Shown one piece after another: positions 1,431 through 64,000 of a stretch of 64,000 nt of DNA (position 1 is its first letter; each line of letters starts with the position of its first letter). The notes under the pieces were generated by a model, which ran no database searches, was not told where the DNA came from, and saw only the letters and a list, made by a program, of their open reading frames with translations. The DNA is taken from positions 682,001 through 746,000 of the forward strand of contig NZ_RKIC01000009.1 in assembly GCF_003755185.1 (NCBI RefSeq), given 5' to 3'. Source of the DNA: Frigoribacterium sp. PhB24. GTDB taxonomy: Bacteria; Actinomycetota; Actinomycetes; Actinomycetales; Microbacteriaceae. The position numbers were made by a program, and so were the translations under genes.

Positions 1431-1465
1431 CCGCGCCTCCTGCGGTCGAGACCGAGGAGGCGCGG
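1431..1465. terminator. Hairpin between argS and the DUF2993 gene, built from the AGGAGGCGCG motif
   Basis: Arms CCGCGCCTCCT (1431-1441) and AGGAGGCGCGG (1455-1465) pair perfectly, and the inner CGGT/ACCG extends the stem with one bulged G. No U-tract follows, as usual in GC-rich actinobacteria. It lies 10 bp beyond the argS stop and is probably its terminator. Each arm is a copy of the window-wide 10-mer. Confidence 0.65.
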
Positions 1466-1474
1466 CGCGGGAGG

Positions 1475-3136
1475 TCACATGCGGTCGGGTGCCGAGACGC
1501 CGAGCAGGCCGAGCCCGTTGCGGATGACCTGGCCGGCGGCGTCGTTGAGCCACAGGCGGGTGCGGTGCAGATCGGTGACCTCGTCGTCGCCGAGCGGCGT
1601 GACGCGACAGTTGTCGTACCAGCGGTGGTAGGTGCCGGCGAGCTCTTCGACGTAGCGGGCCACGCGGTGCGGCTCGCGCAGCTCGGCGGCCTGGACGACG
1701 ACGCGCGGCAGCTCGGACAGGGCGCCGAGCAGGGCGCTCTCGGTCTCGTGCGTGAGCAGTGACGCGTCGAACGCGTCCCGCGTGACACCGGCCGCCTCGG
1801 CGTTGCGGGCCACCGCGCGGGTGCGGGCGTGGGCGTACTGGACGTAGAAGACCGGGTTGTCGTTGCTGCGTCTGGTCAACAGGTCGAGGTCGATGTCGAT
1901 CGAGCTGTTCACCGGGCTGCGGACCAACGAGTACCGACCGGCGTCGACGCCCACCGCGTCGACGAGGTCTTCCATCGTGACGACGGTGCCCGCGCGCTTG
2001 GACATGCGCATCGGCTCGCCGTCGCGCAGCAGGTTGACCATCTGGCCGATGAGGATCTCGAGGTTGACGCCGGGCTCGTCGCCGAACGCCGCGCACATCG
2101 CCATCATGCGGCCGACGTAGCCGTGGTGGTCGGCACCGAGCATGATCAGGTTGCGCTCGAAACCGCGCTCACGCTTGTCGAGGTAGTAGGCCAGGTCGCC
2201 GGCGATGTACGCGGCTTCGCCGTCACTCTTGACGATGACGCGGTCGCGGTCGTCGCCGAACTCGGTGGTGCGCAGCCAGGTCGCGCCCTCGGACTCGTAG
2301 ACGTGACCGAGCTCGCGGAGACGGGCGACGGCGCGCTCGACGGCCTTCGACTCGTGCAGCGAGTTCTCGTGGAAGTAGACGTCGAAGTCGACGCCGAAGT
2401 CATGCAGCGAGGACTTGATGTCGGCGAACATGAAGTCGACACCGACCGACCGGAACAGCTCTTGGGCCTCGTCGCGGGGCAGGTCGCGCACGTCGCCGTC
2501 GAAGGTCGCCAGGACGCGGGCGGCGATCTCGGCGATGTACTGACCGCCGTAGCCGTCGTCGGGGGTGGGCTCGCCGAGCGAGCTGGCCAGCAGGCTGCGG
2601 GCGAACCGGTCGATCTGCCCACCGTGGTCGTTGAAGTAGTACTCGCGGGTGACGAGGGCGCCCTGGGCCTGGAAGACGCGGGCCAGGCTGTCGCCGACCG
2701 CGGCCCAACGCACGCCGCCGAGGTGGATCGGGCCCGTCGGGTTCGCCGAGACGAACTCGAGGTCGATGGTGACGCCGCGGTAGTAGTCACCACGACCGTA
2801 CGCCTCGCCCTGCTCGACGATCGAGCGCGCGAGCAGGCCCGCCGCGGCGGCGTCGAGACGGATGTTGATGAAGCCGGGGCCCGCGACGTCGACGTCGGCG
2901 ACGCCGTCGACCTCGGCCAGCTCGGCCGCGATCTCGGTGGCGAGCTCGCGGGGGTTCGTGCCGACGCGCTTCGCGAACTTCATCGCCACGTTGGAGGCCC
3001 AGTCGCCGTGCTCGCGGTTCTTCGGCCGCTCGAGCGCCACGTCGCCCTCGGTCACCGCCACGTCGACGGTGCCTCGGCGCTCGAGGACGCCCTGGACGAC
3101 GGCGAGCAGGGACGTGGAGAGTTCGGCAGGAGTCAC
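1475..3136 (-). CDS. argS: Arginyl-tRNA synthetase
   Basis: Class Ia aminoacyl-tRNA synthetase that charges tRNA-Arg in the cytoplasm. The 553-residue product starts at the GTG at 3136 ([10 protein letters not shown]), just before the N-terminal tRNA-recognition domain; the reading frame stays open further upstream but that stretch is not protein-like. Motifs seen: the HIGH-equivalent HLGG (residues 138-141) after [10 protein letters not shown], the conserved [10 protein letters not shown], the KMSK-equivalent MSK (378-380) and a C-terminal DALR anticodon-binding domain ending [14 protein letters not shown]. Length is normal for the family. It is divergent from the lipoprotein gene at 3201, with only 64 bp between starts, so their promoters must be close together. 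Confidence 0.97.
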
Positions 3137-3200
3137 GAGGGACGATCTTACCGGCCGCCACGGGGCCGACGACGAGCCCGGCGTCGGTGATGATGGAGGG

Positions 3201-3827
3201 ATGAGCCCCGCCGCGACCCGCTCCCCCGTCGTCCTGCGCACCCTCGTCGTGACGGGTGCCCTCGCCCTGTCCCTCACCGCCTGTACGGCCCCGTCGGAGG
3301 CCACGCCGAGTCGCACCCCGACGGCGGGCGGTCAGGCCTCGGCGACCGCCGACTCGACCCCGACCGCGACGCCGACGCCCGACCTCGTGAGCACGCCGTT
3401 CACGATCGACTGCGACGATCTGCTCGACGCCGGCTCGCTCTCGACCTGGTACCCGGGGTTGACGGCCGTGACCGACGACCGCGCGAGCGGCGACGAGAGC
3501 AGGGACGGTGAGGCCCTGCGGCAGGTGGCCGACGCGGACGGCACGACGTGCACGTGGCAGGACTCCAGCGGCGCCACCGTCACGGTCGGCGTGGCGCACT
3601 TCGACGCGGACAGCCTCGACGAGCTGGCCAACGAGCTCGTCGCGACGAGCAACTCGGTGCCCACCTTCGGCGTCGAGGGCTACTTCGACACGCCCGGCGA
3701 GATCGGCACGGCCGAGGCGTTCGCGTCACCGGCGTTCGTCGTGGCCCGCTCGACGACGTTCCTCGAACCGGGCGACGCCGAACCGGTCGTGTCGGCCGTG
3801 CTCTCGGCACTGAAGCAGGTCGGCTGA
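3201..3827 (+). CDS. Predicted lipoprotein, function unknown
   Basis: A 208-residue protein starting at ATG 3201, directly behind the ribosome site GGAGGG. It has a lipoprotein signal peptide with lipobox LTAC (Cys28), then a Thr/Pro-rich flexible linker to about residue 60, then a globular domain with two cysteines (in IDCDDLL and TTCTWQ) that may form a disulfide. I do not recognise a family. The layout (linker plus small folded domain, C-terminal SALKQVG) is typical of actinobacterial surface lipoproteins. It is a single gene, convergent with the hydrolase at 3879. Confidence 0.8.
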
Positions 3828-3878
3828 GACCGAGACCGAGGGCGAGGGCGGGAGGCGCGCTCGCGTGAGGGGCGCGGC

Positions 3879-5758: not shown

Positions 5759-6340
5759 TCAGTCGGGCTGGCGGCGGGCGCGGTCGGCGTCGTCGCGCTC
5801 GAGTTCGCGGCGCAGGACGCGCTCGGGCACGGCGACGTGCTCGGCGGCCTCGCGCATGCTCGCTCCCCCGGCGCGCAGCTGGCGGGCCGCGTCGAGGCGG
5901 CGCCTCGAGACCGGGGGCTTCGGGGTCTGCGCGACCCGCGCCTCCTGACGTCTGCGGGTCTCGGCGCGGTGCAGCTCACCCCCGACCTGCTCGTCGAAGC
6001 GGGCCAGGGAGGCCGTCACCCGGAAGAAGAAGCGGCCGTAGGCGTTGAGCTCGTCGATCTGCTCGTCGATCGAGCGGAAGGCCACCCCCAGGGCGTCGAG
6101 GGTCGCCATCACGCCGACCAGTTCGGCGACCGAGCGACCGATGCGGTCGACGTTCGCCACGACGAACACGTCGCCCTCTCGCAGGCTGCCGATCGCCTTC
6201 GCGAACTCGGGGCGTGACTGCCGGGTGCCGGTGGCGTGATCGACGAAGATCTTGTCGCACCCGGTCGCCCGGAGACGTTCGACCTGCTGGTCGGACGACG
6301 GATCGTCTCGCGAGATGCGGGCGTACCCGACGACGGTCAC
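5759..6340 (-). CDS. Serine recombinase (resolvase/invertase family)
   Basis: 193-residue small serine recombinase. The N-terminal catalytic domain shows the nucleophile in GYARIS (Ser10) followed by DQQVERL, and the later NVDRIGRS motif (family form LDRLGRS). The C-terminal part (about residues 130-190) is a basic helix-turn-helix DNA-binding domain (SRRRLDAARQLRAGGASMREAAEHVAV). Start is GTG 6340, preceded by GGAAGG at 6-nt spacing. No transposase, res-site partner or phage genes are seen beside it, so it may be a remnant of a mobile element or a domesticated recombinase. The nearby tRNA-Arg is a typical integration target, but no duplicated tRNA 3' end was found. Confidence 0.9.
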   Translation of the reverse strand: MTVVGYARISRDDPSSDQQVERLRATGCDKIFVDHATGTRQSRPEFAKAIGSLREGDVFVVANVDRIGRSVAELVGVMATLDALGVAFRSIDEQIDELNAYGRFFFRVTASLARFDEQVGGELHRAETRRRQEARVAQTPKPPVSRRRLDAARQLRAGGASMREAAEHVAVPERVLRRELERDDADRARRQPD

Positions 6341-6799: not shown

Positions 6800-7690
6800 T
6801 CAGGCTGCCGAGGCCTCGGGCAGGGCCCCGCGACGCCGCCGCCGACCGGCCGCGATCGTTACCCCGACGCTCGCCGTGGTCACACAGGCCAGGGCCACCA
6901 CCTCGCGCACCCCGAGCGCCTCGCCGAGCACGACGAGCCCGGCCGACGCGGCCACCGCCGGCCCCAGGCTGGACAGGACGCCGAACACCCGGGTCGGCAG
7001 TCGCCGCAGCGCCACCGACTCGAGGGCGTACGGGATCGCCGAGGTCAGCGCCGCCACGACCAGGAAGATCAGCAGGAGGCGCGGGTCGGCCCGGACGGCC
7101 ACCGTCGCGTCGTGCGCCCCGAACGGGACGACCACGAGGGCGGCGACGAACATGGCGGTCGCGAGGGCGCCCATGGGGTCGCGACCCCGACCGAGGGAGG
7201 CGTTGGCCAGGATGTAGCAGGCCCAGAACGCCCCGGCACCGAGGGCGAGGAGCACGCCGACGAGCGGGATCGCGCCGGTCGAGTCGGAACCGAGCAGCAC
7301 GACCCCGGCGAGGGCGAGCAGCGCCCAGGCCGCGTCCCACCACCGCCTCGTCTGCACGAGCGCCACGACCAGTGGACCGAGGAACTCGAGGGTGACCGCG
7401 ACCCCGAGCGGCACGACGTCGATCGCGAGGTAGATGAGCGAGTTCATCCCCGCAAGGGCCAGGCCGAGCACGACCACGCCGAGCCAGGTACGGCGCGGCC
7501 ACCGCCAGGGACGCGGTCGGAAGACCACGAGCAGCAGCGCGGCCCCGAACGCGAGGCGCAGGGCGGCCGCGCCCGTCGGACCCAGGGCCTCGAAGTGCGT
7601 CTTGGCGAGGGCGGCCCCGAACTGCACCGACACGATCGCCGCGACGGCGAGGAGGGGCGACGGCACACGGCCGAGAGGGCTGGGGTTCAC
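6800..7690 (-). CDS. EamA/RhtA-type drug/metabolite exporter
   Basis: 296-residue polytopic membrane protein of the DMT superfamily with about ten predicted helices in two EamA repeats. The second repeat ends LSSLGPAVAASAGLVVLGEALG, the signature region of RhtA-like threonine/homoserine exporters. The substrate is not determinable from sequence. A basic C-terminal tail (GRRRRRGALPEASAA) is cytoplasmic by the positive-inside rule. It is a single gene facing the small membrane protein at 7741 across a 50-bp divergent spacer. The gene carries an in-frame exact copy of AGGAGGCGCG (7074-7083, read as DPRLL on the coding strand). Confidence 0.88.
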   Translation of the reverse strand: MNPSPLGRVPSPLLAVAAIVSVQFGAALAKTHFEALGPTGAAALRLAFGAALLLVVFRPRPWRWPRRTWLGVVVLGLALAGMNSLIYLAIDVVPLGVAVTLEFLGPLVVALVQTRRWWDAAWALLALAGVVLLGSDSTGAIPLVGVLLALGAGAFWACYILANASLGRGRDPMGALATAMFVAALVVVPFGAHDATVAVRADPRLLLIFLVVAALTSAIPYALESVALRRLPTRVFGVLSSLGPAVAASAGLVVLGEALGVREVVALACVTTASVGVTIAAGRRRRRGALPEASAA

Positions 7691-12991: not shown

Positions 12992-13794
12992 GCGCCGACC
13001 CCATGAGCACCGACCGTCCGCGCGTCACGGTCGACCGCGACGGCCACGTGCTGCTGATCGGCCTCGACCGACCCGACAAGCGCAACGCCGCCGACCTGCG
13101 GATGCTGCGCGAGCTGGCCCTGGCTTACGGCGAGCTGGACCGCGACCCCGAGCTGCGCGTCGGACTGCTCTTCGCCCACGGCGACCACTTCACTGCCGGC
13201 CTCGACCTCGGCGACGTCGTGCCCGCGGTGACCGCCGAGGGTCTGGACGTCGTCCCCGAGGGGGGCCTCGACCCCTGGCAGGTCCACGGACGTCAGGTGT
13301 CCAAGCCCGTCGTCATGGCCGTGCAGGGCACCTGCCTGACGCTCGGCGTCGAGCTCGCGCTGGCGAGCGACGTCGTGGTGGCGAGCCGCGACGCGCGATT
13401 CGGCCAGATCGAGGTCAGCCGCGCCATCCTGCCGTTCGGTGGCGCGACGATCAGGTTGCCCCGCCGGGTCGGCTGGGGTGACGCCATGCGGTACCTGTTG
13501 ACCGGCGACCTCCTGGACGCCGAGGAGGCGCGGCGCATCGGGATCGTGCAAGACCTGGTCGACGTCGGGTCGGCCTTCGAGCACGCCCTCGACCTCGCCC
13601 GACGCATCGCGGCGCAGGCTCCCCTGGCCGTCCAGGCCACGCTCGCGAACTCCCGGCTGGCCGTTCGTGAGGGCGACGCCGCGGCCGAGGCCCGGCTCCA
13701 GCCCGAGCTCGTGCGGTTGCTCGCCTCGGACGACGCCCGGATCGGGTTCGAGGCCTTCGTCTCGCGGACCGCCGCCGAGTTCACGGGACGCTGA
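12988..13794 (+). CDS. Enoyl-CoA hydratase/isomerase (crotonase family)
   Basis: 268 residues. The crotonase fold is shown by DRPDKRNA, the oxyanion-hole segment HFTAGLDL and GTCLTLGVELALASD. Both acid/base glutamates expected for true hydratases are present (Glu122 in GVELALA, Glu142 in FGQIE). It acts on an unknown acyl-CoA. ATG 12988 overlaps the arginase-like stop (ATGA). A second ATG six codons in is an alternative start. The gene contains an exact AGGAGGCGCG copy (13523-13532, read EEARR) and is followed by a strong terminator hairpin. Confidence 0.88.
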   Translation: MSADPMSTDRPRVTVDRDGHVLLIGLDRPDKRNAADLRMLRELALAYGELDRDPELRVGLLFAHGDHFTAGLDLGDVVPAVTAEGLDVVPEGGLDPWQVHGRQVSKPVVMAVQGTCLTLGVELALASDVVVASRDARFGQIEVSRAILPFGGATIRLPRRVGWGDAMRYLLTGDLLDAEEARRIGIVQDLVDVGSAFEHALDLARRIAAQAPLAVQATLANSRLAVREGDAAAEARLQPELVRLLASDDARIGFEAFVSRTAAEFTGR

Positions 13795-16846: not shown

Positions 16847-16881
16847 GCAGGAGGCGCGACCGACGTGGTCGCGCCTCCTGC
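16847..16881. terminator. 15-bp hairpin built from the AGGAGGCGCG motif
   Basis: Perfect arms GCAGGAGGCGCGACC and GGTCGCGCCTCCTGC with a 5-nt loop, between the stops of the SDR (plus) and siderophore-interacting protein (minus), so a bidirectional terminator. Both arms contain an exact copy of the repeated 10-mer. Confidence 0.85.
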
Positions 16882-22709: not shown

Positions 22710-23512
<803 letters not shown>

Positions 23513-23533: not shown

Positions 23534-24958
23534 TCACCACATCGACGGGTGCCGGCGCTGCCACCGCAGCCGACGCTCGAGCTGCGCGCCGATCGCGAGC
23601 AGGACGTCCTCGCGGCCCGGCCGTCCGATCAGCTGCACGCCCGCCGGCAGCCCGTCGACCTCGCCCACGGGCAAGCTGATCGCGGGCAGCCCGGCCACGT
23701 TGACGAACGACGTGAACGGCGAGTACAGGCACTGCTGCTCGAAGTTGCGCTCGGCGTCCTCGGCGTCGTACCAGCCGATCGGCCGCGGCAACATGGCGAG
23801 AGTCGGTGTCAGGACGGCGTCGAAGGCCGAGAACCGCTCGATCACGTCGCGCTCGAACGCCGCCAGCCCGACGAGTGCCGTCGACAGCTCGCGTGCCGTC
23901 ACGCGTCGGCCCTGCTCGACCAACCACCGGGTGATCGGCTCGAGCAGCGCCAGCTCGGCCTCGGTCTCGGCGGGGATGCCCGCCGCCCCCGCCTGCCAGA
24001 TCGTGCGGAAGAGCGCCGGGTAGTCCGACGGAGGCAGGCTGGTCTCGTCGATCCCGTGCCCCGTCGTCGCGAGCAGGTCGGCGGTCTCGCCGAGGACGCC
24101 CAGGAGGCGCGGGTCGACCCGGACGTCGAACGCGTCGTCCCACGGGCTGGTCGTCATCACGGCGATCTGGAAGCGTCCCTCGCCCCGTACGGCGGTGCCG
24201 AGGTACGCCCCGTCGGGTGACGGCGGAGCCGAGAGCGCCTGGTGGTGGCGCGGTGGACGACCGTCGGGCGACACCATCGCGTCGAGCAGCAAGGCGGCGT
24301 CGGCGACCGACCGGGCCAGCGCACCACCGACGGGAAGGCCCGCGAGGCTGGTCAACCCCGACTGCGCCGGCACCCGGCCCCGCGAGGGTTTGAGGCCGAC
24401 CAGGCCGGTGGCGGCGGCCGGGATGCGGATGCTGCCTCCGCCGTCCGACCCGGGGGCGAAGGGCAGCAGCCCCGCGGCGACGGCGGCCGCGGCCCCGCCG
24501 CTCGACCCGCCCGCGCCCGTCCCGGGTGACCACGGGTTGCGCGTCGGCGGACCGACGAGCGTCTCGGTGTACGCGGTCAGCCCGAACTCGGGCGTCGCCG
24601 TCTTACCCACGCTGATCGCACCGGCCTCGTCGAGCACCTCGGTGATCTCGGACGACGTCTCGGGCACCCGTCCCCGGCTGAGGCGCGACCCGGACCAGGT
24701 CGGCACACCGGCCCGGTCGCTGAGGTCCTTGTCGGCCAGCGGCAGCCCCCAGAGCGGCGCGACCGAGGGGCCGGCGGCGGCCAGGGCGTCGGCCCGCGTG
24801 CGGGCGGCGTCGTCGGTCACCGTGACGAACGCACCGAGGTCGCCGTCGAGACGGGCGATGCGCTCGAGGTAGTGGGTGGTCAGCTCGCGGGGCGAGACCT
24901 CGCCGCGGCGCAGCCAGTCCCACTGCTCGTGGGCGCTCAGGTGATGGAGTTCGAACAC
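23534..24958 (-). CDS. Amidase (amidase-signature family)
   Basis: 474 residues. The Ser-cisSer-Lys triad is visible: Lys77 in LADKDLS, Ser152 in GAGGSSGGAAAA and Ser176 in GSDGGGSIRIPA. The family hydrolyses a broad range of amides, and the closest recognised type is a generic GatA-like or aryl-acylamidase homologue rather than GatA itself (no gatB/C nearby, wrong length). ATG 24958 starts MFELHHLSAHEQWDWL. It is convergent with the importer operon, 21 bp between stops, and is probably its own transcription unit. Confidence 0.9.
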   Translation of the reverse strand: MFELHHLSAHEQWDWLRRGEVSPRELTTHYLERIARLDGDLGAFVTVTDDAARTRADALAAAGPSVAPLWGLPLADKDLSDRAGVPTWSGSRLSRGRVPETSSEITEVLDEAGAISVGKTATPEFGLTAYTETLVGPPTRNPWSPGTGAGGSSGGAAAAVAAGLLPFAPGSDGGGSIRIPAAATGLVGLKPSRGRVPAQSGLTSLAGLPVGGALARSVADAALLLDAMVSPDGRPPRHHQALSAPPSPDGAYLGTAVRGEGRFQIAVMTTSPWDDAFDVRVDPRLLGVLGETADLLATTGHGIDETSLPPSDYPALFRTIWQAGAAGIPAETEAELALLEPITRWLVEQGRRVTARELSTALVGLAAFERDVIERFSAFDAVLTPTLAMLPRPIGWYDAEDAERNFEQQCLYSPFTSFVNVAGLPAISLPVGEVDGLPAGVQLIGRPGREDVLLAIGAQLERRLRWQRRHPSMW

Positions 24959-25423: not shown

Positions 25424-26047
25424 GTGAGCGACACGACGTCGGGTGACGACCCGGCCCCCGAACCCGGCGGGTCGACCCTCGGCCCCGGCGGATCCACCGT
25501 GGGCCCCGGCGGCCAGGCCCTCACCCCCAAGGGCGAGACCAGGAGGCGCGCGCTGCTCGACGGCGTCCTGGCCGTCCTCGAGGCGGGCGGCCCCTCGGCC
25601 GTGACGCACCGGGCCGTCGCCCGTGCGGCCGGCGTCCCGGTCTCGGCGGCCACGTACTACTTCGCCGGCCGGGACGACCTGCTGCGTGCGGCGCTCCGCC
25701 ACGCGACCATCGACTGGGTGCGCTCGTTCGACCGACTCGAGCGCGCCTCCTTGCGTGACCTCGCCGAGACGCTCGTCCGGTACGCGATCACCGAGCGCGG
25801 GTCGGCCCGGGCGCAGTACGAACTGCTCTTCACCGCCATGCGGGACCCGTCGCTGCGCGAGGACGCCGAGCTCTGGTACTCGTCGCTCGAGCACGTGCTG
25901 GCACGGGCCGGCGTGCCGGGCGAGCGGCTCGACGTCGTCGCCCTGGCCGTCGACGGCTTGATCGTCCGCATGCTCTGGCGTGGCGAGCCGTGTACCGTCG
26001 CGGCGACCGAACGGATGCTGCACGAGATCGTCGGCCCGCTGCCCTGA
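25424..26047 (+). CDS. TetR-family transcriptional regulator
   Basis: 207 residues from GTG 25424. A Gly/Pro-rich leader (about 30 residues) precedes the helix-turn-helix: GETRRRALLDGVLAVLEAGG, then THRAVARAAGVPVSAATYYFAGRDDLL, the TetR recognition helix. The C-terminal ligand domain ends RMLHEIVGPLP. It lies 5 bp after the SMR pump and most likely represses it. Two exact copies of AGGAGGCGCG occur in the gene (25541-25550 as Arg-AGG Arg-AGG codons; 25742-25751 on the minus strand). Convergent with the GNAT gene, 3 bp apart. Confidence 0.88.
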   Translation: MSDTTSGDDPAPEPGGSTLGPGGSTVGPGGQALTPKGETRRRALLDGVLAVLEAGGPSAVTHRAVARAAGVPVSAATYYFAGRDDLLRAALRHATIDWVRSFDRLERASLRDLAETLVRYAITERGSARAQYELLFTAMRDPSLREDAELWYSSLEHVLARAGVPGERLDVVALAVDGLIVRMLWRGEPCTVAATERMLHEIVGPLP

Positions 26048-31785: not shown

Positions 31786-32548
31786 CCTTCAGCTCGCCCT
31801 TGGCGACCTTGTAGGTGGCCGCCTGCGCCACGGGCTTGATGGTCACCAGGTCGAGGTTGACGTGGGCCGGCAGCTCGACGGAGTGCACGATCGACTCGGC
31901 GACGTCGTCGGCCGTCAGCGGCGACTCGACGTCACGGTACACGGCGTCCGCGCGGTCCCGGTCACCGCCGAAGCGCACGAGCGAGAACTCCTCGGTGTGC
32001 ACCATTCCCGGCGCGATCTCGATCACCCGGATCGGCTCCCCCGCCAGCTCGAGCCGCAGCACGGCCACGAGGGCGTGCTCGGCGAACTTCGAGGCGTTGT
32101 AGCCGCCGCCGTTCTCGTACGCGACGTGGCCGGCGATCGAGGTGACCGTGACGATGTCGGCGCCCCGCGCCTCCTCGGCTCCGTGGCGCAGCGACGGCAG
32201 CAGGGCGGTGACCGCGCGCTTCGTGCCGAGCACGTTGACCTCGAACATGCGCTGCCAGTCGTCGATCGAGCCGTTCTCGACGCTGTCGAGTCCGAAGGCG
32301 CCGCCGGCGTTGTTGACGAGGGCGTGCAGCGGCCCGGTCGACTCGACGTGGGCCCGCAGGGCTGCCACGTCGTCGTCGCTGGTGAGGTCGGCCCGGAACC
32401 AGGTCGCCCCCGTCTCGTCGGCGAGCGCACGGAGGCGGTCCTCGCGCCGGGCGACCGCGAGCACCTCCCAGCCGCGCGAGCGGAACAGCCGTACCGTCGC
32501 CGCTCCGATACCCGAGCTGGCCCCCGTCACCACGACCCGTCCCACCAT
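31772..32548 (-). CDS. Short-chain dehydrogenase/reductase
   Basis: 258 residues: TGASSGIG (8-15), NNAGG, catalytic Tyr and Lys in YNASK (GGYNASKFAEH), and a PGMV substrate-loop segment. This is the classical NAD(P) SDR pattern; the substrate is unknown. ATG 32548 is fixed by a textbook Shine-Dalgarno, AGGAGGCGCAC directly before ATG, which is also a near-copy of the repeated 10-mer. The coding strand holds another exact copy (32166-32175, read EEARG). Confidence 0.92.
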   Translation of the reverse strand: MVGRVVVTGASSGIGAATVRLFRSRGWEVLAVARREDRLRALADETGATWFRADLTSDDDVAALRAHVESTGPLHALVNNAGGAFGLDSVENGSIDDWQRMFEVNVLGTKRAVTALLPSLRHGAEEARGADIVTVTSIAGHVAYENGGGYNASKFAEHALVAVLRLELAGEPIRVIEIAPGMVHTEEFSLVRFGGDRDRADAVYRDVESPLTADDVAESIVHSVELPAHVNLDLVTIKPVAQAATYKVAKGELKVRKD

Positions 32549-34100: not shown

Positions 34101-34141
34101 GAGGAGGCGCGGTGCGCGTAACAAACGCACCGCGCCTCCTC
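34101..34141. terminator. 16-bp hairpin between metY and metX, made of two copies of the 10-mer
   Basis: Perfect arms GAGGAGGCGCGGTGCG and CGCACCGCGCCTCCTC with a 9-nt loop. It sits between two co-directional genes that function in one pathway, so it may attenuate transcription into metX rather than simply end the metY message. Confidence 0.7.
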
Positions 34142-38760: not shown

Positions 38761-39103
38761 GCCGGTTCCGCACCCGCGCCTCCTGCTCCGGCCCTCCCCC
38801 GCCCCTGCCGCCTGCCTGCCTTCCTGCCTTGTGCACATCGCGACGAGTCACCGCCCGCCGCGCCCTGGCCCGCAGAGATGAGCGGTGTGTCGGACACTCT
38901 CTGTCGGGTTCGGCACGCCTGGGGGCCCGAGACGAGTCGGGTTCGGCACGCCCGACGGCACGAGATCGGGGTCGGCACGGCGCACGAGTCAGCGGTCACC
39001 CCGGGGCCGGCAGTCCGCACCCGAACGCGCAGAGCATCTGCATCCTCCTCTGCGAGAGGTCGTGCACGACCCCAGGAGGCGCGGGCGGCGCCCCGAGGAC
39101 CGC
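38761..39103. repeat. 343-bp spacer with a threefold short direct repeat
   Basis: GTCGGGTTCGGCACGCC occurs at 38903-38919 and 38936-38952, and a degenerate third copy, TCGGGGTCGGCACGGC, at about 38966-38981. The same spacer holds two exact AGGAGGCGCG copies in opposite orientation (38775-38784 minus, 39074-39083 plus). No gene is recognisable. Confidence 0.6.
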
Positions 39104-42600: not shown

Positions 42601-42942
42601 TCAGCCCCTCGTGACGGTCGCGTCGAGCGCCGCTTCGAGCCGCTCGACCTTGCCGCTCAACTCGCCGGTGCGCCCCGGCCGGATGTCGGCCTTGAGCACC
42701 AGCGACACGCGCGATCCGAAGGCACCGACGGCCTCGGTGGCGGCCTTGACGACGGCCATCACCTCGTCCCATTCGCCCTCGACCTCGGTGAACATCGACG
42801 AGGTGTGGTTGGGCAGCCCCGAGGCGCGCACCACCGCGACCGCGGCGGCCACGGCCGAATGGACCGAGTCGGCCTCGGAGCCGGCGGACGGCCCGCCCTC
42901 GGGGGCGGCACCACTGGGCGAGACGGAGAACGCGACGATCAT
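42601..42942 (-). CDS. Thiamine-binding protein, MTH1187/YkoF (DUF77) family
   Basis: 113 residues. MIVAFSVSPSG, HSAVAAAVAVVRASGLPNHTSSMFTEVEGEWDEVMAVVKAATEAV and VSLVLKADIRPG match the DUF77/MTH1187 family. These small ferredoxin-like proteins bind thiamine and often assemble as multimers. ATG 42942 overlaps the stop of the GT87-like gene by 4 nt, so it is coupled to a membrane glycosyltransferase, an unusual pairing whose meaning is unclear. Confidence 0.85.
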   Translation of the reverse strand: MIVAFSVSPSGAAPEGGPSAGSEADSVHSAVAAAVAVVRASGLPNHTSSMFTEVEGEWDEVMAVVKAATEAVGAFGSRVSLVLKADIRPGRTGELSGKVERLEAALDATVTRG

Positions 42943-44273
42943 GCGTCCATCCTCGCGTGTGCGGGGCGGACGCGCCAGAGCGTGACGACCGCCCACGCCA
43001 GCAGTCCGAGCTCGAGCACGGCCCGCACGGTGACCACGGCGACCAGGTCGGGTCGCGCGGCGAGCAGGGCGTCGTACTCGAACGGGTACACCACCTGCGT
43101 CAACCCCGCGACGACCACGGCCAACGCCGCCGGCACGACGAACCGCGGCCCTCCTGCCCGGGCGAGCACGACGCCGACGACGACGGGGACGGCCAGCCAG
43201 GCCACGAACTGCGGCGAGCCGACCTTGTTGGTCACGATGAGCGCGACGACGACGGCCAGCGACAACGGGCCCAGGAGGCGCGTGGCCGTCACCCCGCGAC
43301 GCACCGCCCGCAGACCCAGCAGCACGACACCCAGCACGACCGCGGCCATCACGAGGCTCATGGCCTTCGCCGCGAAGCCGACCCCGTCGCCGGCGATCTG
43401 GTAGGTGAGGATCTCGCGGTCGTAGTAGACGAAGGTGCCGGGGACCCCCGCGGCGGCACGCCAGAGCCAGAGCACCGCCGCCGGCGACTCGACCTGCAGC
43501 CCCCGGCCGGCCTGCTGGCCCACGAAGCCGACGACGTTCCAGCCACTGCCGAGCACGAGCGAGATCGACACCACGACGGCGCTGGTCACCGCGGCGGCCA
43601 CGACGACCTCGACCCGACGACGCACGGCGAGGACGGCGACCACCACGAGGGCGGCGGGCCAGACCTTGACCCAGGCCGCGATCGTGAGCAGGACGGACGC
43701 CAGCGTGGGTCGGGTGGAGACCAGCAGCAGACCCACCAGCGCGATCGCCACGGTGACCGCGTCGATGCGGCCGAGGGCGATCGGCCCGAGGGCGACGAGG
43801 AACGCCAGCCACCACCACGCGGCGACCACGGACCCGGCGCGTCGTCGGGCGACGAGCACTCCGAAGGCACCGGCGTTCAGCGACGACACGAGCACGAGCC
43901 ACACCGCTCCGTAGCCCGGGTCACCCCCGAGCCGGGCGACGAGCATCGGCACCGCGGCGAGCAGGGGGTAGACCCACGGTCGGTCGACGCCCACCCAGTC
44001 GCCGCCCCCGACGCCCTGCTGCATCCACGTGCGGTAGACGACGTCCACGTCGCCCAGGGTGCGGTTGCCACCCACGAGGTTGAGCCGGACGAGCCAGGCG
44101 TGCACCAGCACGAAGGCGATGCCGAGGACGACCGGTGACGCGGCGAGCGACCTCGCCCGGTCGACCAGGCCGATGCGATCGTCGGCCACGGCAGGGGTGC
44201 GGGACGACCCCGCGTCGGGCACGGCCGGCGGCGCCCCGGGGTCGGCCGACGCGGGCGGGACGGAGGTCGGCAT
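42939..44273 (-). CDS. Polyprenyl-phosphate-dependent glycosyltransferase, GT87/DUF2029-like
   Basis: 444 residues from ATG 44273 (GTG 44279 is an alternative). About ten transmembrane helices; a periplasmic loop after the first helix contains NRTLGDVDVVYRTWMQQG, and the Asp in GDVDV could serve as the catalytic base of GT-C enzymes. GT87 members (PimE-like) transfer mannose from polyprenyl phosphates to cell-wall glycolipids. A conserved helix-loop reads GRIDAVTVAIALVGLLL. Divergent from the amino acid SBP gene across 79 bp. Confidence 0.8.
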   Translation of the reverse strand: MPTSVPPASADPGAPPAVPDAGSSRTPAVADDRIGLVDRARSLAASPVVLGIAFVLVHAWLVRLNLVGGNRTLGDVDVVYRTWMQQGVGGGDWVGVDRPWVYPLLAAVPMLVARLGGDPGYGAVWLVLVSSLNAGAFGVLVARRRAGSVVAAWWWLAFLVALGPIALGRIDAVTVAIALVGLLLVSTRPTLASVLLTIAAWVKVWPAALVVVAVLAVRRRVEVVVAAAVTSAVVVSISLVLGSGWNVVGFVGQQAGRGLQVESPAAVLWLWRAAAGVPGTFVYYDREILTYQIAGDGVGFAAKAMSLVMAAVVLGVVLLGLRAVRRGVTATRLLGPLSLAVVVALIVTNKVGSPQFVAWLAVPVVVGVVLARAGGPRFVVPAALAVVVAGLTQVVYPFEYDALLAARPDLVAVVTVRAVLELGLLAWAVVTLWRVRPAHARMDA

Positions 44274-44352
44274 GCCCACAGGCTAGCCGCCGACCCCGAC
44301 ACCGGACGTCATGCGTCGGCCGACGTCGGCCGTCGCCGCTACGATCCCTCTC

Positions 44353-46052: not shown

Positions 46053-46888
46053 GCACGCACACCCCCGACCCCACCCCAGGAGGCGCGGTGCCCGCCACCC
46101 CCGCCGTCACCGGCCCCGAGACGGTCGAGCCCCCCGCGACGGCTCGCCACCCCGAGATCGTGCTGCGCCTCGACGGGGTGCGCAAGTCGTTCGGCGACAC
46201 GGTCGTGCTCGACGGCATCGACCTGGACGTCGCACGCGACGAGGTCGTGGCCCTGATCGGCGCCAGCGGCTCGGGCAAGTCGACGCTGCTGCGCACCGTG
46301 AACCTGCTCGAGCGGGTCGACGACGGCCGCATCGTGCTCGGCGACGACGACATCACCGATCCCCGCGTGCGCGTCGACGCCGTGCGGGCCCGCATCGGCG
46401 TCGTGTTCCAGCACTTCAACCTCTTCCCGCACCTGACCGTGCTCGACAACGTCGCCCTCGCCAGCCGTCACGTGTTGCGCCAGCCGAAGGCCGCCGCGAA
46501 CGAGCGCGCCCTCGAGGTCCTGACGCGCGTGGGCCTCGGCGACAAGGCCGGCGCCTATCCCGACCGCCTCTCGGGCGGGCAGCAGCAGCGGGTCGCCATC
46601 GCCCGGGCCTTGGCCCCGCGCCCCGCCGTGCTGCTGCTCGACGAGATCACGAGCGCGCTCGACCCCGAGCTGGTGGGCGAGGTGCTCGACCTGGTCCGCA
46701 CGCTCAAAGAGGTCGGCACGACGATCCTGATGGCGACGCACGAGATGGCCTTCGCCCGCGACGTCGCCGATCGGGTCGTCTTCCTCGACCGCGGCCGCAT
46801 CGCCGAGCAGGGGCCGCCCGCCCAGCTCTTCACGGCGCCCCGTGAGGCCCGCACGCGCGAGTTCCTCACCCGCTTCACCGCGCCCTGA
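46049..46888 (+). CDS. Amino acid ABC transporter ATPase (HisP/GlnQ type)
   Basis: 279 residues. A disordered Pro/Thr leader (about 33 residues) precedes Walker A GASGSGKST, Q-loop VVFQHFNLFPHLTVLDNV, signature LSGGQQQRVAIARAL, Walker B VLLLDEITSALD (IT instead of PT, usual for this subfamily) and switch His MATHEMAFA. ATG 46049 overlaps the permease stop. An exact AGGAGGCGCG copy lies in the leader (46078-46087, read as Gly-Gly-Ala). Confidence 0.94.
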   Translation: MSTHTPDPTPGGAVPATPAVTGPETVEPPATARHPEIVLRLDGVRKSFGDTVVLDGIDLDVARDEVVALIGASGSGKSTLLRTVNLLERVDDGRIVLGDDDITDPRVRVDAVRARIGVVFQHFNLFPHLTVLDNVALASRHVLRQPKAAANERALEVLTRVGLGDKAGAYPDRLSGGQQQRVAIARALAPRPAVLLLDEITSALDPELVGEVLDLVRTLKEVGTTILMATHEMAFARDVADRVVFLDRGRIAEQGPPAQLFTAPREARTREFLTRFTAP

Positions 46889-49317: not shown

Positions 49318-49325
49318 CCCCCCTC

Positions 49326-50459
49326 GTGACGAACGCAGCACAGACGGCACCCGCCCCCACGACCCCCTCCGACGCCCCCGTCGGCCTCTTCGACCCGATC
49401 ACCCTCCGCGGGCAGGCCTTCCGCAACCGGCTCTGGGTCGCGCCCATGTGCCAGTACTCGGCCGAGCTCGAGGACGGCGTCCCCACCGACTGGCACCTCG
49501 TGCACCTGGGCTCGCTCGCCCGAGGAGGCGCGGGTGCGGTCATCGCCGAGGCCACGTCGGTCACGCCCGAGGGACGCATCTCGCCGCAAGACCTGGGACT
49601 CTGGAACGACGCCCAGGTCGAGGCGTTCCGCCCGATCACGGCCTTCATCCGCTCCCAGGGCTCGGTGCCGGGCGTACAGCTCGCGCACGCGGGCCGCAAG
49701 GCCTCGACTTTCCGCCCGTGGAGCGAGACGCAGGGCACCGTCCCCGCCGACGAGGGCGGCTGGACCACCGTCGCCCCTTCGGCCGTGGCCTTCGAGGGCT
49801 ACGACGAGCCCGTCGCGCTGACCACCGAGGCGGTGGGGGGCCTCGTCGAGGCGTTCCGCGTCGCCGCGCGCCGCTCGATCGACGCAGGCTTCGAGCTGAT
49901 CGAGCTGCACGCGGCCCACGGCTACCTGCTGCACCAGTTCCTCTCGCCGCTGAGCAACGAGCGCGACGACCGGTACGGCGGGCCGCTCGAGAACCGTGCG
50001 CGCTTCCTGCTCGAGGTCGTCGCGGCCGTCCGTGCCGAGGTCGGCGACGAGTACCCGCTGCTGGTCCGCTTCTCGGCGACCGACTGGGCCGACGGTGGCT
50101 GGAACGAGGACGACACCGCGACCGTCGCCGCCTGGGCGCGCGACGCCGGCGCCGACCTGTTCGACATCTCGACCGGCGGCCTCGTCGCCGGGGTGAGCAT
50201 CCCGGTCGGCCTCGGCTACCAGGTGCGCTTCGCCGAGCACGTCCGCACGCAGGGCCGCGTCGAGACCGGGGCCGTCGGCCTCATCGTCGGAGCCGAGCAG
50301 GCGAACGAGGTCGTCGCGAGCGGCCGGGCCGACGTCGTCCTGATGGCCCGCGAGTTCTTGCGCGACCCACACTTCCCCCTGCGCGCCGCGGCCGAGCTCG
50401 GGGTCGAACTGGACTACACCCCACCGCAGTACCAGCGCGCGCCGTTCCGCGTGCGCTGA
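49326..50459 (+). CDS. NADH:flavin oxidoreductase, YqjM-like OYE
   Basis: 377 residues from GTG 49326. TIM-barrel FMN enzyme of the old-yellow-enzyme family. Diagnostic segments: APMCQYSAE (the YqjM Cys at the FMN), VQLAHAGRKAST, ELIELHAAHGYLLHQFLSPLSNERDDRYGGP (active-site His-Ala-Ala-His) and a C-terminal ALIV-like VLMAREFLRDPHFP. Family members reduce electrophilic alkenes and participate in oxidative-stress response. An exact AGGAGGCGCG copy (49523-49532) is read RGGAG. Confidence 0.94.
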   Translation: MTNAAQTAPAPTTPSDAPVGLFDPITLRGQAFRNRLWVAPMCQYSAELEDGVPTDWHLVHLGSLARGGAGAVIAEATSVTPEGRISPQDLGLWNDAQVEAFRPITAFIRSQGSVPGVQLAHAGRKASTFRPWSETQGTVPADEGGWTTVAPSAVAFEGYDEPVALTTEAVGGLVEAFRVAARRSIDAGFELIELHAAHGYLLHQFLSPLSNERDDRYGGPLENRARFLLEVVAAVRAEVGDEYPLLVRFSATDWADGGWNEDDTATVAAWARDAGADLFDISTGGLVAGVSIPVGLGYQVRFAEHVRTQGRVETGAVGLIVGAEQANEVVASGRADVVLMAREFLRDPHFPLRAAAELGVELDYTPPQYQRAPFRVR

Positions 50460-50491: not shown

Positions 50492-50534
50492 GACCCGCGC
50501 CTCCTCGCCCTCTCGGGGTCGGGAGGCGCGGGTC
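50492..50534. terminator. Hairpin built from the 10-mer, between convergent genes
   Basis: GACCCGCGCCTCC (50492-50504) pairs with GGAGGCGCGGGTC (50522-50534) over a 17-nt loop. The left arm contains an exact copy of the repeated motif, the right arm a 9/10 copy. Confidence 0.75.
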
Positions 50535-53044: not shown

Positions 53045-53200
53045 CGGGTGCCCTCACCCCGCTCGGAGGTGATGGGGCCCGTGGTCAGGAGGCGCGGCGT
53101 GCGATGGTGCGAGGGTGCGGTCGTCTGAGACGGAGGGTCATCCATAGACGGGAGATCTTACGGCACGTGCACGATTTCCGTCGTTCGTCCTCACGCGGCC

Positions 53201-61994: not shown

Positions 61995-62046
61995 GCGCCG
62001 GGCCGACGACGATGAGCGGGGCACGGTCGACGATGGGCGGAACGCG

Positions 62047-63177
62047 ATGAGCTGGTGGAGCGACGGCGACGACGCCGACGACGAGCGCGACTACGGCGAG
62101 TACGACGAGAGCTCGGTGCGGGTGCGCCCGAACCCCAAGGGCAACAAGCCGCGCACCAAGCAGCGGCCGGCCTACGCGAACGCCGAGGAGGGCGTCGTCT
62201 GGACGGTCGACCGTGGCCGCTACGGCGTCCTGATGGACGCGGGCACTCCCGACGAGCGTGAGATCACGACGGCCCGGGCGCGCGAACTCGGCAAGAAGAG
62301 CGTCGTGACCGGCGACCGGGTCGGCGTCGTCGGCGACACGAGCGGCTCCGAGGGGTCGCTCGCCCGGATCGTCAAGGTGCACGAGCGGTCCACCCTGTTG
62401 CGGCGCAGCGCCGACGACAGCGACGCCGTCGAGCGCGTCATCGTCGCCAACGCCGACCAGATGCTGATCGTCGTGGCCGCGGCCGACCCCGAGCCGCGCC
62501 CGCGCCTCGTCGACCGGTACATGGTCGCGGCGTTCGACGCGGGGGTCGAACCGATCCTCTGCATCACGAAGACCGACCTCGCCGACCCGGCGCCGTTCGC
62601 GGCGCACTTCTCGTGCTTCGACCTGCGCATCGTCACGACGACGTCGACCTCGTTCGACGAGGTCGCGCCCGGCGGGCAGGTCTCCCCCGCGCTCGACGAG
62701 CTGCGTGGTGTCCTCGACGGCCACGTCACGGTCACGGTCGGCCACTCGGGCGTCGGCAAGTCCACCCTCGTGAACGCGCTGACCGGGTCGCGACGCGAGG
62801 TGGGCGTGGTCAACGCCGTCACCGGGCGCGGGCGGCACACGTCGTCGTCGACGGTGTCGTTCAAGGTGCCGACGGGCGGCTGGATCGTCGACACCCCGGG
62901 TGTGCGGTCGTTCGGGCTCGGGCACGTCGACCCCGAGAACATCCTCAAGTCGTTCGCGGCGCACGCGATCCCGGCCGAGGGCGAACCGGTCGACGGCATC
63001 CCTCTGGCCGAGGCCCACGACTGGGAGATCGTCGACCGCGTCGAGGCCGGTGAGCTCGGCGACGTCGGCCGCGAACGGCTCGAGTCGCTGCAGTCGCTGC
63101 TCCAGTCCAAGGGCGGCGTGAGCGGTCGGGACCTCGCCGCGGCCGCCGACGACGCCCGCAGCGACGAGCTCGGCTAG
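62047..63177 (+). CDS. rsgA: Ribosome small-subunit-dependent GTPase A
   Basis: 376 residues. Circularly permuted GTPase (G4 before G1): OB-fold, G4 TKTD (174-177), G1 GHSGVGKST (232-240), G3 DTPG (282-285). The usual C-terminal zinc knuckle (C-x-C-x-H-x-C) is absent: the 90 residues after G3 contain no Cys. The highly acidic start ([18 protein letters not shown]) is unusual. It matures the 30S subunit. Follows aroA in the conserved aroA-rsgA order. Confidence 0.92.
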
Positions 63178-63216
63178 CGCACACCCGCGTCGTCCGGCGA
63201 CGGGCCGGACGTGCGC

Positions 63217-63283
63217 TGTCGTACCGCGTTCCGTGCAGCACACCGGGACTAGTCGCGGTGCCGTGCACGAAACGCGGTGCGAC
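63217..63283. repeat. Long imperfect inverted repeat after rsgA
   Basis: GTCGTACCGCGTTCCGTGCA (63218-63237, continuing to 63241) pairs with the right arm 63258-63283 (reverse complement GTCGCACCGCGTTTCGTGCA...) with few mismatches over about 24 bp. It probably terminates rsgA. An exact AGGAGGCGCG copy follows at 63291-63300. Confidence 0.6.
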
Positions 63284-63356
63284 GAGGCGCAGGAGGCGCG
63301 GGTCGAGCCGGCGGACAGGGCGCCGACGAGCAGGGCGGGCTGGGTACGCTGACGGG

Positions 63357-64000
63357 GTGACCGATGCCGCCGAGCCGACCCGCGCCTCCTCGTCCGAAGC
63401 TGTGTATACGCCGTTCCCGTCCTTCGCAACGTGGATGCGGTCCTTCTCGATGGACGAACGACTGTTCGCGACCTTCGCCACCCGTCTGTCGACGGCAAAG
63501 GACGGCGCTGACCCCGAGTCATTGAGGGAGGCGATCGAGACCGCGACCAAGTGGGCGGCCATCGACACCGGAGCGATCGAGGGACTCTACGAGGTCGACC
63601 GTGGGTTCACGTTCTCGGTCGCGGCAACGGCGGCGGCGTGGGACAACATCCACTTGGCCAAGAATGAGCAGACAGAGCGGGCCATCAAGGACGCGCTCGA
63701 GGCCTACGACTTCGTCCTCGACGCGGCGACTCGACGGACGCCGATCTCCGAGATGCTGATCAAGACGATCCACGAGATCATCTGCCGGTCGCAGGACGAG
63801 CACTCGGTCGTGACGGCCGTCGGCCTGCAGAAACAGGAGATGCCGAAGGGTGAATACAAGAAGCACGCCAACAGCCCGTTCAACATCGCGACCGAGACGG
63901 TACATGCCTACGCATCGGTGCTCGACACACCGCCCGAGATGGCACGACTCATCGCCGAATTGTCGAGTGACGAGTTCGCATCGGCACATCCCGTGGCGCA
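63357..64000 (+). CDS. Fic-family protein (N-terminal part, cut by right edge)
   Basis: GTG 63357 opens 214 codons to the window edge. The N-terminal helix has TGAIEG (residues 71-76), matching the [S/T]xxxE[G/N] inhibitory motif of Fic proteins; then IHEIICRSQDEHSVVTAVG, GEYKKHANSPFNIATETVHAYASVL and SSDEFASAHPVA, the segment just before the HPFx[D/E]GN[G/K]R active site, which would lie beyond the edge. AMPylation or related activity is inferred. TACGCT, about 7 bp upstream, fits a leaderless -10. Codon use is visibly less GC-rich (TCA, TTG, AGG, AAT, ACA) than the neighbours, suggesting transfer. Confidence 0.85.
   Translation, partial: MTDAAEPTRASSSEAVYTPFPSFATWMRSFSMDERLFATFATRLSTAKDGADPESLREAIETATKWAAIDTGAIEGLYEVDRGFTFSVAATAAAWDNIHLAKNEQTERAIKDALEAYDFVLDAATRRTPISEMLIKTIHEIICRSQDEHSVVTAVGLQKQEMPKGEYKKHANSPFNIATETVHAYASVLDTPPEMARLIAELSSDEFASAHPVA

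What the first reader, a model, noticed from the sequence alone, without database searches (positions are those of the whole stretch)
1432..63390. Highly over-represented 10-mer AGGAGGCGCG (extended CAGGAGGCGCGGGTC-like), with uptake-sequence-like distribution
I count 23 exact copies by eye: plus strand at 1455, 7074, 13523, 16849, 24102, 25541, 34102, 39074, 43273, 46078, 49523, 53087, 63291; minus at 1432, 5937, 16870, 22729, 25742, 32166, 34131, 38775, 50496, 63381; plus roughly 15 copies with one mismatch. At 70% GC about one copy is expected in 64 kb on both strands. About half lie in genes, in several different reading frames and on both strands (read as EEAR, DPRLL, RGGAG, PGGAV, RASSS, APPL), so the constraint is on DNA, not protein. 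The rest are intergenic and often paired into hairpins. Abundant 10-mers, both orientations, coding plus paired terminators, is the pattern of Neisseria/Haemophilus DNA uptake sequences. Other explanations are a Chi-like recombination site or a regulatory or structural repeat.
Basis: partly seen in the sequence, partly recalled or inferred. Interest (0 to 1): 0.8.

Follow-up and report, generated by a model that had tools for sequence, protein, structure and literature searches.

The report
Genus-wide DNA word in Frigoribacterium
A ten-letter DNA word is scattered more than a thousand times through this actinobacterium's genome in a pattern like the "self" tags that Neisseria and Haemophilus use to choose which DNA to take up; whether it serves that purpose here is still untested.

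Summary
All 23 copies of AGGAGGCGCG are where stated (0.96 expected). The genome, a Frigoribacterium by ComEC similarity, holds 1342 copies against 15 of the reversed word. All 16 genus genomes searched are enriched (513-1570); no other genus comes near in 249 family and 149 order genomes. The constraint is on DNA: 77 coding copies against 11.6 after synonymous shuffling, on both strands of genes, without following the strand bias of genes. Copies are about eightfold denser between genes; 32 of 130 form 16 inverted hairpin pairs, none in divergent gaps. They outlast control 10-mers between species and are few on presumed accessory contigs. Other family genera carry their own words (CGGATGCCG, CGGATCCTG, CGGATGCCTC), a dialect pattern. 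Best reading: a DNA uptake sequence, a first candidate in Actinobacteria as far as I saw; uptake is untested. Three of 16 species lack PilT yet keep the motif, pointing to the Tad/Flp pilus or another receptor. Chi, REP elements and ribosome-binding sites fit worse.

The parts
1432..1464 (.). inverted pair of the motif (- at 1432-1441, + at 1455-1464), hairpin between two minus-strand genes
   Evidence: (dG -40.3); both arms exact in 5 of 5 congeners
5937..5946 (-). motif, coding, same strand as called gene 5759-6340
   Evidence: exact in 5 of 5 congeners
7074..7083 (+). motif, coding, opposite strand to called gene 6800-7690
   Evidence: exact in 5 of 5
13523..13532 (+). motif, coding, same strand as called gene 12988-13794
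   Evidence: exact in 4 of 5
16849..16879 (.). inverted pair (+ 16849-16858, - 16870-16879), hairpin between convergent genes
   Evidence: (dG -42.8); arms exact in 5 of 5 and 3 of 5
22729..22738 (-). motif, coding, opposite strand to called gene 22706-23512
   Evidence: exact in 4 of 5
24102..24111 (+). motif, coding, opposite strand to called gene 23534-24958
   Evidence: exact in 5 of 5
25541..25550 (+). motif, coding, same strand as called gene 25424-26047
   Evidence: exact in 5 of 5
25742..25751 (-). motif, coding, opposite strand to called gene 25424-26047
   Evidence: exact in 4 of 5
32166..32175 (-). motif, coding, same strand as called gene 31772-32548
   Evidence: exact in 5 of 5
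34102..34140 (.). inverted pair (+ 34102-34111, - 34131-34140), hairpin between co-directional genes
   Evidence: (dG -43.8); both arms exact in 5 of 5
38775..38784 (-). motif, intergenic (convergent gap)
   Evidence: exact in 4 of 4 aligned
39074..39083 (+). motif, intergenic (same convergent gap)
   Evidence: exact in 3 of 3 aligned
43273..43282 (+). motif, coding, opposite strand to called gene 42939-44279
   Evidence: exact in 5 of 5
46078..46087 (+). motif, directly before a called gene start (intergenic, not so in the calls behind)
   Evidence: exact in 3 of 5
49523..49532 (+). motif, coding, same strand as called gene 49326-50459
   Evidence: exact in 4 of 5
50496..50530 (.). motif (- 50496-50505) facing a one-mismatch copy (+ 50521-50530): imperfect inverted pair in a convergent gap
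   Evidence: exact copy kept in 4 of 5
53087..53096 (+). motif, intergenic
   Evidence: exact in 5 of 5
63291..63390. two motifs in inverted orientation 90 bp apart (+ 63291-63300 intergenic; - 63381-63390, intergenic, inside a called gene)
   Evidence: exact in 3 of 4 and 3 of 3 aligned congeners

Best explanation
AGGAGGCGCG (strict core GGAGGCGC, preferred A before and G after, then roughly GTCG) is the DNA uptake sequence of the genus Frigoribacterium. Proposed working: competent cells bind this word with a surface receptor, most likely a minor pilin of the Tad/Flp pilus (the machine that natural transformation needs in the actinobacterium Micrococcus luteus), and pass the DNA to ComEA and ComEC, so that DNA of their own genus is preferred. 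Biased uptake plus recombination keeps re-installing the word at positions where it does little harm (between genes, and at synonymous codons), and inverted pairs downstream of genes have been co-opted as hairpins, perhaps terminators. SHOWN: abundance, genus specificity in the genomes searched, DNA-level constraint, lack of polarity along the stretches examined, pairing, retention between species, presence of ComEA, ComEC, Tad and type IV pilus genes, persistence of the motif without PilT, different words in sister genera. INFERRED: that the word is bound at uptake, the identity of the receptor, and the terminator role.
For: 1342 copies vs 15 of the reversed control; 16 of 16 genus genomes enriched. 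Coding copies 77 vs 11.6 +/- 2.8 (max 20 of 200) under within-gene synonymous shuffling; second species G253 74 vs 9.2. Where the peptide allows the word it is spelled out in 21 of 25 [KEQ]EAR, 18 of 23 RAS and 18 of 40 [SPTA]RLL sites. 68 plus / 62 minus in a region whose coding is 305 kb minus vs 124 kb plus, and 37 same / 40 opposite to genes; runs test on 98 unpaired sites z = +2.28, alternating rather than polarised. Density 1.43/kb between genes vs 0.18/kb in genes; 16 inverted pairs under 80 bp and no direct pair in 464 kb; 8 convergent, 8 co-directional, 0 divergent. Retention in five congeners 22/23, 20/21, 21/22, 21/22, 15/21 vs 0.39-0.51 for any aligned 10-mer; composition-matched control in four of them. 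Few copies on presumed accessory contigs (3 vs 18.2). Genus-level words in the family, as described for Neisseriaceae DUS, whose inverted pairs are also linked to terminators (PMC3630211, passages). ComEA-ComEC, type IVa pilus locus, Tad locus with DUF4244 and TadE pilins; M. luteus transformation needs tad genes (PMC4322843, passages).
Against: No uptake experiment exists here, and transformation of Frigoribacterium did not appear in the listing I saw (10 of 592 papers listed). A ComEC match is in 90 of 90 sampled family genomes, so machinery presence does not discriminate. Motif load does not follow the type IVa pilus: 3 of 16 Frigoribacterium lack PilT over the cut-off and carry 1204, 1249 and 1492 copies. 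In the family the CGGATGCCG load is only weakly tied to PilT (one per genus, p = 0.04; 12 of 28 PilT-minus genera at 6x or more). Single-mismatch forms at core positions 1-8 are not over-represented (excess only at the two outer positions; two-mismatch forms 901 vs 1099 expected), whereas known uptake sequences show a graded excess (PMC1939737, passages). Seven other Frigoribacterium stretches, four of them added to the window's orthologues or overlapping them, sum to 69 same / 98 opposite to genes (p = 0.03 if independent), a mild orientation excess absent from the own genome. CGGATGCCG shows no clear intergenic excess. No receptor was identified. Pairs lack a T-run: 0 of 16 have TTTT within 15 bases, so termination is doubtful.
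Confidence: 0.6

Rival explanations
1. A Chi-like recombination hotspot read by the cell's helicase-nuclease.
For: Over-represented in the chromosome and few copies on presumed accessory contigs; non-palindromic word with an 8-bp strict core. Non-polarised Chi candidates are reported for Vibrio (PMC8022716, passages).
Against: No polarity in the stretches seen: 68 plus / 62 minus where coding is 305 kb minus vs 124 kb plus; unpaired sites alternate more than chance. The origin of replication was not located, so polarity is judged from gene strand bias. The roughly eightfold intergenic excess and the inverted pairs are not expected of Chi (my judgement). The abundant word changes between genera of one family.
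Confidence: 0.12
2. A DNA-binding, architectural or methylation word of unknown role (HIP1-like), unrelated to DNA import.
For: HIP1 of cyanobacteria is an abundant word tied to orphan methyltransferases (PMC4390886, start of abstract in the listing). The strict core without excess of near-misses and the persistence without PilT fit a binding site inside the cell.
Against: AGGAGGCGCG is not palindromic; genus-level words, hairpin pairs and scarcity on accessory DNA need separate explanations. No methyltransferase or binding protein was looked for.
Confidence: 0.2
3. A REP- or MITE-like hairpin element spread by a transposase, or a terminator family.
For: 16 inverted pairs with folding energies of -31.0 to -53.5 kcal/mol, none in divergent gaps. 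Other family genomes carry repeats that look REP-like.
Against: 78 of 130 copies are inside genes in several frames; beyond about 10 bp only weak preferences are shared and loops vary in length and sequence, so no mobile cassette. 98 of 130 copies are unpaired. No T-run at the pairs.
Confidence: 0.04
4. Codon, codon-pair or Shine-Dalgarno (AGGAGG) bias.
For: The word contains AGGAGG, and the frames that need rare codons are nearly empty (same-0: 2, opposite-2: 3 of 78).
Against: 77 coding copies vs 11.6 after synonymous shuffling; on both strands of genes; roughly at control level in the other 84 family genera, with mild excesses in a few genomes (G055 216 vs 75, G008 52 vs 14, G119 41 vs 13, G163 90 vs 46).
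Confidence: 0.02

Closest known systems
DNA uptake sequence (DUS) of Neisseriaceae and its dialects
   Same: Short word in high number (2245 and 3269 copies of one dialect), conserved within species, changing between genera, in genes and between them, inverted pairs linked to terminators (PMC3630211, passages; here).
   Different: Actinobacterium, so no outer membrane of the Neisseria type (general knowledge); GC-rich word; the motif persists without the type IVa pilus, where the DUS receptor ComP sits (PMC6370729, passages); near-misses not in excess at core positions.
Uptake signal sequence (USS) of Pasteurellaceae (Haemophilus)
   Same: Non-palindromic word without orientation bias around the chromosome (PMC1939737, passages), strict core with softer flanks.
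   Different: Flanks here show no AT-rich tracts (that USS has them is recalled). Known uptake sequences show a graded excess of near-misses. The proposed USS receptor is a type IV minor pilin, PpdA/ComN (PMC12616744, passages).
Chi sites
   Same: Over-represented non-palindromic word of conserved DNA.
   Different: No polarity in the stretches seen; intergenic excess; inverted pairs.
HIP1 of cyanobacteria
   Same: Abundant clade-specific word.
   Different: HIP1 is a palindrome tied to methyltransferases (PMC4390886, start of abstract); this word is not palindromic.
Flp/Tad-dependent natural transformation of Micrococcus luteus
   Same: Actinobacterium with comEA, comEC and tad genes; the DUF4244 pilin here resembles by eye the M. 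luteus Flp fragment printed in PMC6370729.
   Different: No uptake sequence mentioned: 0 hits for that term in the main text of PMC4322843.

Membership tests
DNA uptake sequence (DUS/USS) | short word with strong genome-wide excess | tested here: met
   1342 vs 15 control; 16 of 16 genus genomes
DNA uptake sequence (DUS/USS) | no orientation bias to replication or genes | tested here: met
   own genome even; seven other Frigoribacterium stretches sum to 69 same / 98 opposite to genes; origin not located
DNA uptake sequence (DUS/USS) | coding plus intergenic, with part in intergenic inverted pairs | tested here: met
   52 intergenic / 78 coding; 16 pairs; terminator role not shown, 0 of 16 with a T-run
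DNA uptake sequence (DUS/USS) | constraint on DNA rather than protein | tested here: met
   77 vs 11.6
DNA uptake sequence (DUS/USS) | conserved within the clade, dialects between genera | tested here: met
   that the other words are dialects of one system is inference
DNA uptake sequence (DUS/USS) | scarce in recently acquired DNA | tested here: inconclusive
   3 vs 18.2 expected on small contigs singled out after their counts were seen; accessory nature is inferred
DNA uptake sequence (DUS/USS) | excess falling gradually with mismatch load | tested here: not met
   single-mismatch 176 vs 84.7, but the excess sits only at the two outer positions; two-mismatch 901 vs 1099; expectation model differs from that of PMC1939737
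DNA uptake sequence (DUS/USS) | competence machinery in the genome | tested here: met
   ComEA, ComEC, Tad, type IVa pilus; but a ComEC match in 90 of 90 family genomes; DprA, ComF not looked for
DNA uptake sequence (DUS/USS) | recognition by a type IV(a) pilus minor pilin | tested here: not met
   3 of 16 Frigoribacterium lack PilT over the cut-off but keep the motif; a Tad receptor is not excluded
DNA uptake sequence (DUS/USS) | the word enhances DNA uptake or transformation | not testable with these tools
   needs an uptake assay
Chi site | polarised along the leading strand | tested here: not met
   with gene strand bias as the proxy; criterion from PMC8022716
Chi site | recognised by the recombination helicase-nuclease | not testable with these tools
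   needs biochemistry
REP/MITE element | extragenic, with an element longer than the core | tested here: not met
   78 of 130 in genes; only weak shared flanks, no shared loops
HIP1-type iterated palindrome | palindromic word | tested here: not met
   read from the sequence
HIP1-type iterated palindrome | read by orphan methyltransferases | not tested
   no methyltransferase search made

The most novel reading that the evidence does not exclude
The family Microbacteriaceae uses DNA uptake sequences with genus-specific dialects (CGGATGCCG in many genera, CGGATGCCTC in one, CGGATCCTG in another, AGGAGGCGCG in Frigoribacterium), read by a receptor that is not on a type IVa pilus. This would be a self-DNA recognition system in Gram-positive bacteria, evolved independently of Neisseria and Haemophilus.
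Probability: 0.5. Interest if true: 0.92.

Novelty: new variant of a known kind. Interest (0 to 1): 0.82.

Why it matters
[quoted passage not shown] A third case, in a Gram-positive phylum, would separate uptake bias from outer-membrane passage, offer several natural dialects for finding the receptor, and suggest that this family exchanges DNA by transformation more than supposed. It could also give a tool for transforming these bacteria.

Tried and rejected
Type IVa pilus as the required machine: attractive because a pilB-pilT-pilC-pilin-pilD-pilMNO locus lies between rpoC and rpsL (gene names by my reading), but 3 of 16 species show no PilT over the cut-off, nor a PilB-like second hit, and keep the motif. 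All three are drafts (10 to 80 contigs, 99% complete). Association of CGGATGCCG with PilT over 110 family genomes: p = 0.0002 overall, p = 0.04 (Mann-Whitney) and 0.14 (Fisher) with one genome per genus of 2 Mb or more. G016 GTGGGCGTGG: a tandem repeat inside one gene, discarded. G055, the other genome with the highest AGGAGGCGCG count (216 vs 75), showed only 3 copies and no clear word in 120 kb. ARAGORN's second tRNA at 13479-13568, overlapping site 13523, has an undetermined anticodon and no Rfam hit; I treat it as false. Searches of print for the words: one search listed 18 of 18 papers, unrelated by title; one search listed 8 of 170, one opened (a probe sequence). No paper tying Microbacteriaceae to uptake sequences showed in what was listed; those lists were partly truncated. 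An earlier statement of mine that 3 sites lie near comEC rested on a list of intergenic sites only; one search recounted it.

Caveats: gene calls come from a home-made codon-model caller; two settings gave 78 coding / 52 intergenic and 77 / 53 of 130. Markov expectations are order 4, order 3. Own-genome statistics use 464 of 3457 kb. The accessory-contig test (L143, L145-L148) left out L149 (1165 bases, reads N) and includes L147 (4,635 bp, no gene called, GC 0.54, probably rRNA); without L147 the expectation is 16.4 by my arithmetic. Composition-matched retention was run for four of the five congeners (G252 not run).

Full report
WHAT IS THERE. The window is contig 1, 682001-746000, of a 3.46 Mb assembly that holds 680 forward and 662 reverse copies; the same string read backwards occurs 5 and 10 times. 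The genome's ComEC is 85-87% identical to that of three named Frigoribacterium strains, so I call the organism Frigoribacterium, family Microbacteriaceae.

WHERE IT OCCURS. All 16 genomes of the genus that were searched are enriched, 513 to 1570 copies, controls 10 to 51. In 249 family genomes (85 genera; 5 of the 249 in the own genus) no other genus comes near; the mild exceptions include G055 (216 vs 75), G008 (52 vs 14), G119 (41 vs 13) and G163 (90 vs 46). In 149 order genomes (65 genera, own included) no other exceeds 83 copies.

WHAT IT LOOKS LIKE. In 464 kb of the own genome there are 130 copies, 68 plus and 62 minus. 78 lie in genes and 52 between them, i.e. 0.18 and 1.43 per kb. In genes 39 are on the coding strand and 39 opposite, mostly in four of the six frames; the two that need rare codons hold 2 and 3. 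Synonymous-codon shuffling within each gene, which keeps protein and codon usage, leaves 11.6 copies where 77 are seen; in a second species 9.2 vs 74; the reversed string is not in excess (1 vs 6.2). Where a peptide permits the word it is often spelled: 21 of 25 [KEQ]EAR, 18 of 23 RAS before a T-codon, 18 of 40 [SPTA]RLL. So the constraint is on DNA. Changes at core positions 1-8 are not in excess (GGAGGCGC is strict); the first and last base are softer (C, G at the first; T at the last), with weak preferences outside (C at -2 and -3; G, G or T, C, G after).

PAIRS. 32 of the 130 copies form 16 inverted pairs under 80 bp; none is direct. All fold into strong hairpins with loops of differing length and sequence (one pair overlaps itself); 8 lie in convergent and 8 in co-directional gaps, none in divergent gaps, which make up 24% of intergenic bases. 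This recalls the DUS pairs of Neisseriaceae, but none of the 16 has TTTT within 15 bases, so a terminator role is only a possibility. Some other Frigoribacterium stretches contain a few direct close pairs, for example 5 of 15 in 200 kb of G253.

NO POLARITY. The 464 kb carry 305 kb of coding on the minus and 124 kb on the plus strand, yet the word is even. Unpaired sites (52 plus, 46 minus) alternate slightly more than chance, z = +2.28. A Chi site should be polarised (criterion in PMC8022716, passages). The replication origin was not located; gene strand bias is the proxy. Against evenness: the seven other Frigoribacterium stretches sum to 69 same and 98 opposite to genes (p = 0.03 if independent; five are overlapping orthologues of one region, so they are not independent).

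CONSERVATION. Five congeners aligned to the window (89.6-92.5% identity) keep the exact word in 15/21, 22/23, 20/21, 21/22 and 21/22 aligned sites, whereas any 10-mer is kept in 39-51%. With composition-matched control 10-mers of the same class, in four of them, the contrast holds in genes (11/11, 10/10, 11/11, 7/10 vs 0.30-0.45) and between genes (11/12, 10/11, 10/11, 8/11 vs 0.33-0.38). In the reverse direction, sites found in congeners are kept in the own genome less often (for example 11/16 coding and 11/15 intergenic of G256), so sites turn over. Against the more distant species (about 80% identity) own coding sites are kept in 5/10, 4/8 and 5/8 (controls 0.11-0.13) and intergenic ones in 2/7, 2/4 and 1/4 (controls 0.22-0.26), the latter not clearly above control.

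ACCESSORY DNA. Four small contigs of lower GC (L143, L145, L146, L148) with metal-resistance-like, resolvase-like and transposase genes, and one probable rRNA contig (L147), carry 3 copies where 18.2 are expected (p = 1.4e-5; transposase by Pfam; other gene names are my reading of the protein starts). Two small contigs of normal GC carry 9 and 12 per 20 kb. The contigs were singled out after their counts were seen.

MACHINERY. comEA and comEC are adjacent and open. A type IVa pilus locus (PilB, PilT, PilC, a major pilin, three minor-pilin-like genes, PilD, PilM, PilN, PilO; names by reading, with T2SSE, PilT-family and N_methyl hits) lies between rpoC and rpsL. A Tad locus (T2SSE ATPase, T2SSF, DUF4244 Flp-like pilin, TadE and a further small protein) lies beside a topoisomerase-like gene. 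PilT over its cut-off is in 13 of 16 Frigoribacterium; G250, G254 and G259 lack it, carry 1204, 1249 and 1492 copies, and among themselves keep coding sites at 9/12, 9/17, 9/12, 9/15, 11/15 and 11/18 against 0.17-0.22 for controls; intergenic sites are kept less clearly, 1/8 to 4/6 against 0.13-0.25. A weak hit of the kind that is the Tad ATPase in the own genome is present in 16 of 16. Since M. luteus needs tad genes for transformation (PMC4322843, passages; PMC6370729, passages), I place the receptor on the Tad side, as inference.

DIALECTS. k-mer surveys of other genera showed other words. CGGATGCCG reaches 2929, 2536, 2375, 2320 and 2245 copies in five genomes of four genera (reversed controls 72-109) and is near control in the two Frigoribacterium counted (184 vs 104; 121 vs 133). 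In G063 it is even in orientation (58 same, 54 opposite), has 128 coding copies vs 14.0 after synonymous shuffling, and forms some inverted pairs, but is not clearly denser between genes. Genus g5 instead carries CGGATCCTG (816 and 677 copies; G047 352; the other 107 genomes at most 161; 21 coding vs 2.2 shuffled in G004). G079 carries CGGATGCCTC (20 vs 0.43 expected in 60 kb). All begin [CA]GGA. That these are dialects of one system is inference; dialects by clade are described for Neisseriaceae DUS (PMC3630211, passages).

READING. The combination of strict short word, DNA-level constraint, little or no orientation bias, intergenic hairpin pairs and genus-specific words is that of DNA uptake sequences. 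I hold this at 0.6, because no uptake was measured, because near-misses are not graded as in Haemophilus and Neisseria (PMC1939737, passages), and because the family-wide link to a pilus is weak. The main rivals are a non-polar Chi-like site and an intracellular binding or methylation word.

NOVELTY. PMC12616744 (2025; passage) names Neisseriaceae and Pasteurellaceae as the only families known to do this. None of the listings I saw showed an actinobacterial uptake sequence; several were truncated, and the library holds open-licence papers only.

Noticed in passing
family survey, e.g. G102, G063, G029, G025, G106, G057; L085, L100-L109: CGGATGCCG is over-represented, up to 2929 copies per genome, in many Microbacteriaceae genera, even in orientation and at the DNA level in G063, but near control in Frigoribacterium.
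   Followed up: partly
L075, L110-L113 (G004) and G087: Genus g5 carries a different abundant word, CGGATCCTG (816 and 677 copies), perhaps a dialect of the former.
   Followed up: partly
L086, L128, L129 (G079): CGGATGCCTC (20 vs 0.43 expected in 60 kb) looks like a further dialect.
   Followed up: partly
G047: CGGATCCTG 352 copies while CGGATGCCG is near control (87 vs 62): perhaps an independent shift to the g5 word.
   Followed up: no
L070 10653-20299 and L070/L071 onwards: Type IVa pilus locus with PilT in an actinobacterium, between rpoC and rpsL; PilT over cut-off in 55 of 110 family genomes.
   Followed up: partly
L031, L033-L035 (G110): A repeat built from TCGAGGGCGGGTC in tandem and inverted copies at several places; a different, REP-like element.
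   Followed up: no
L027-L029 (G008), L120-L121 (G045), L089 (G071): REP-like repeats with GTCTCGAAACCC/CTCCTCAACCCGC, TCTCGATACGCC and GGTCCCTGAGC.
   Followed up: no
window 13479-13568: ARAGORN reports a tRNA with an undetermined anticodon overlapping a motif site; no Rfam hit there, probably false.
   Followed up: partly
G253:C1:2393365-2395156: A second pair of PilT/PilB-like ATPase hits in one Frigoribacterium, under the PilT cut-off.
   Followed up: no
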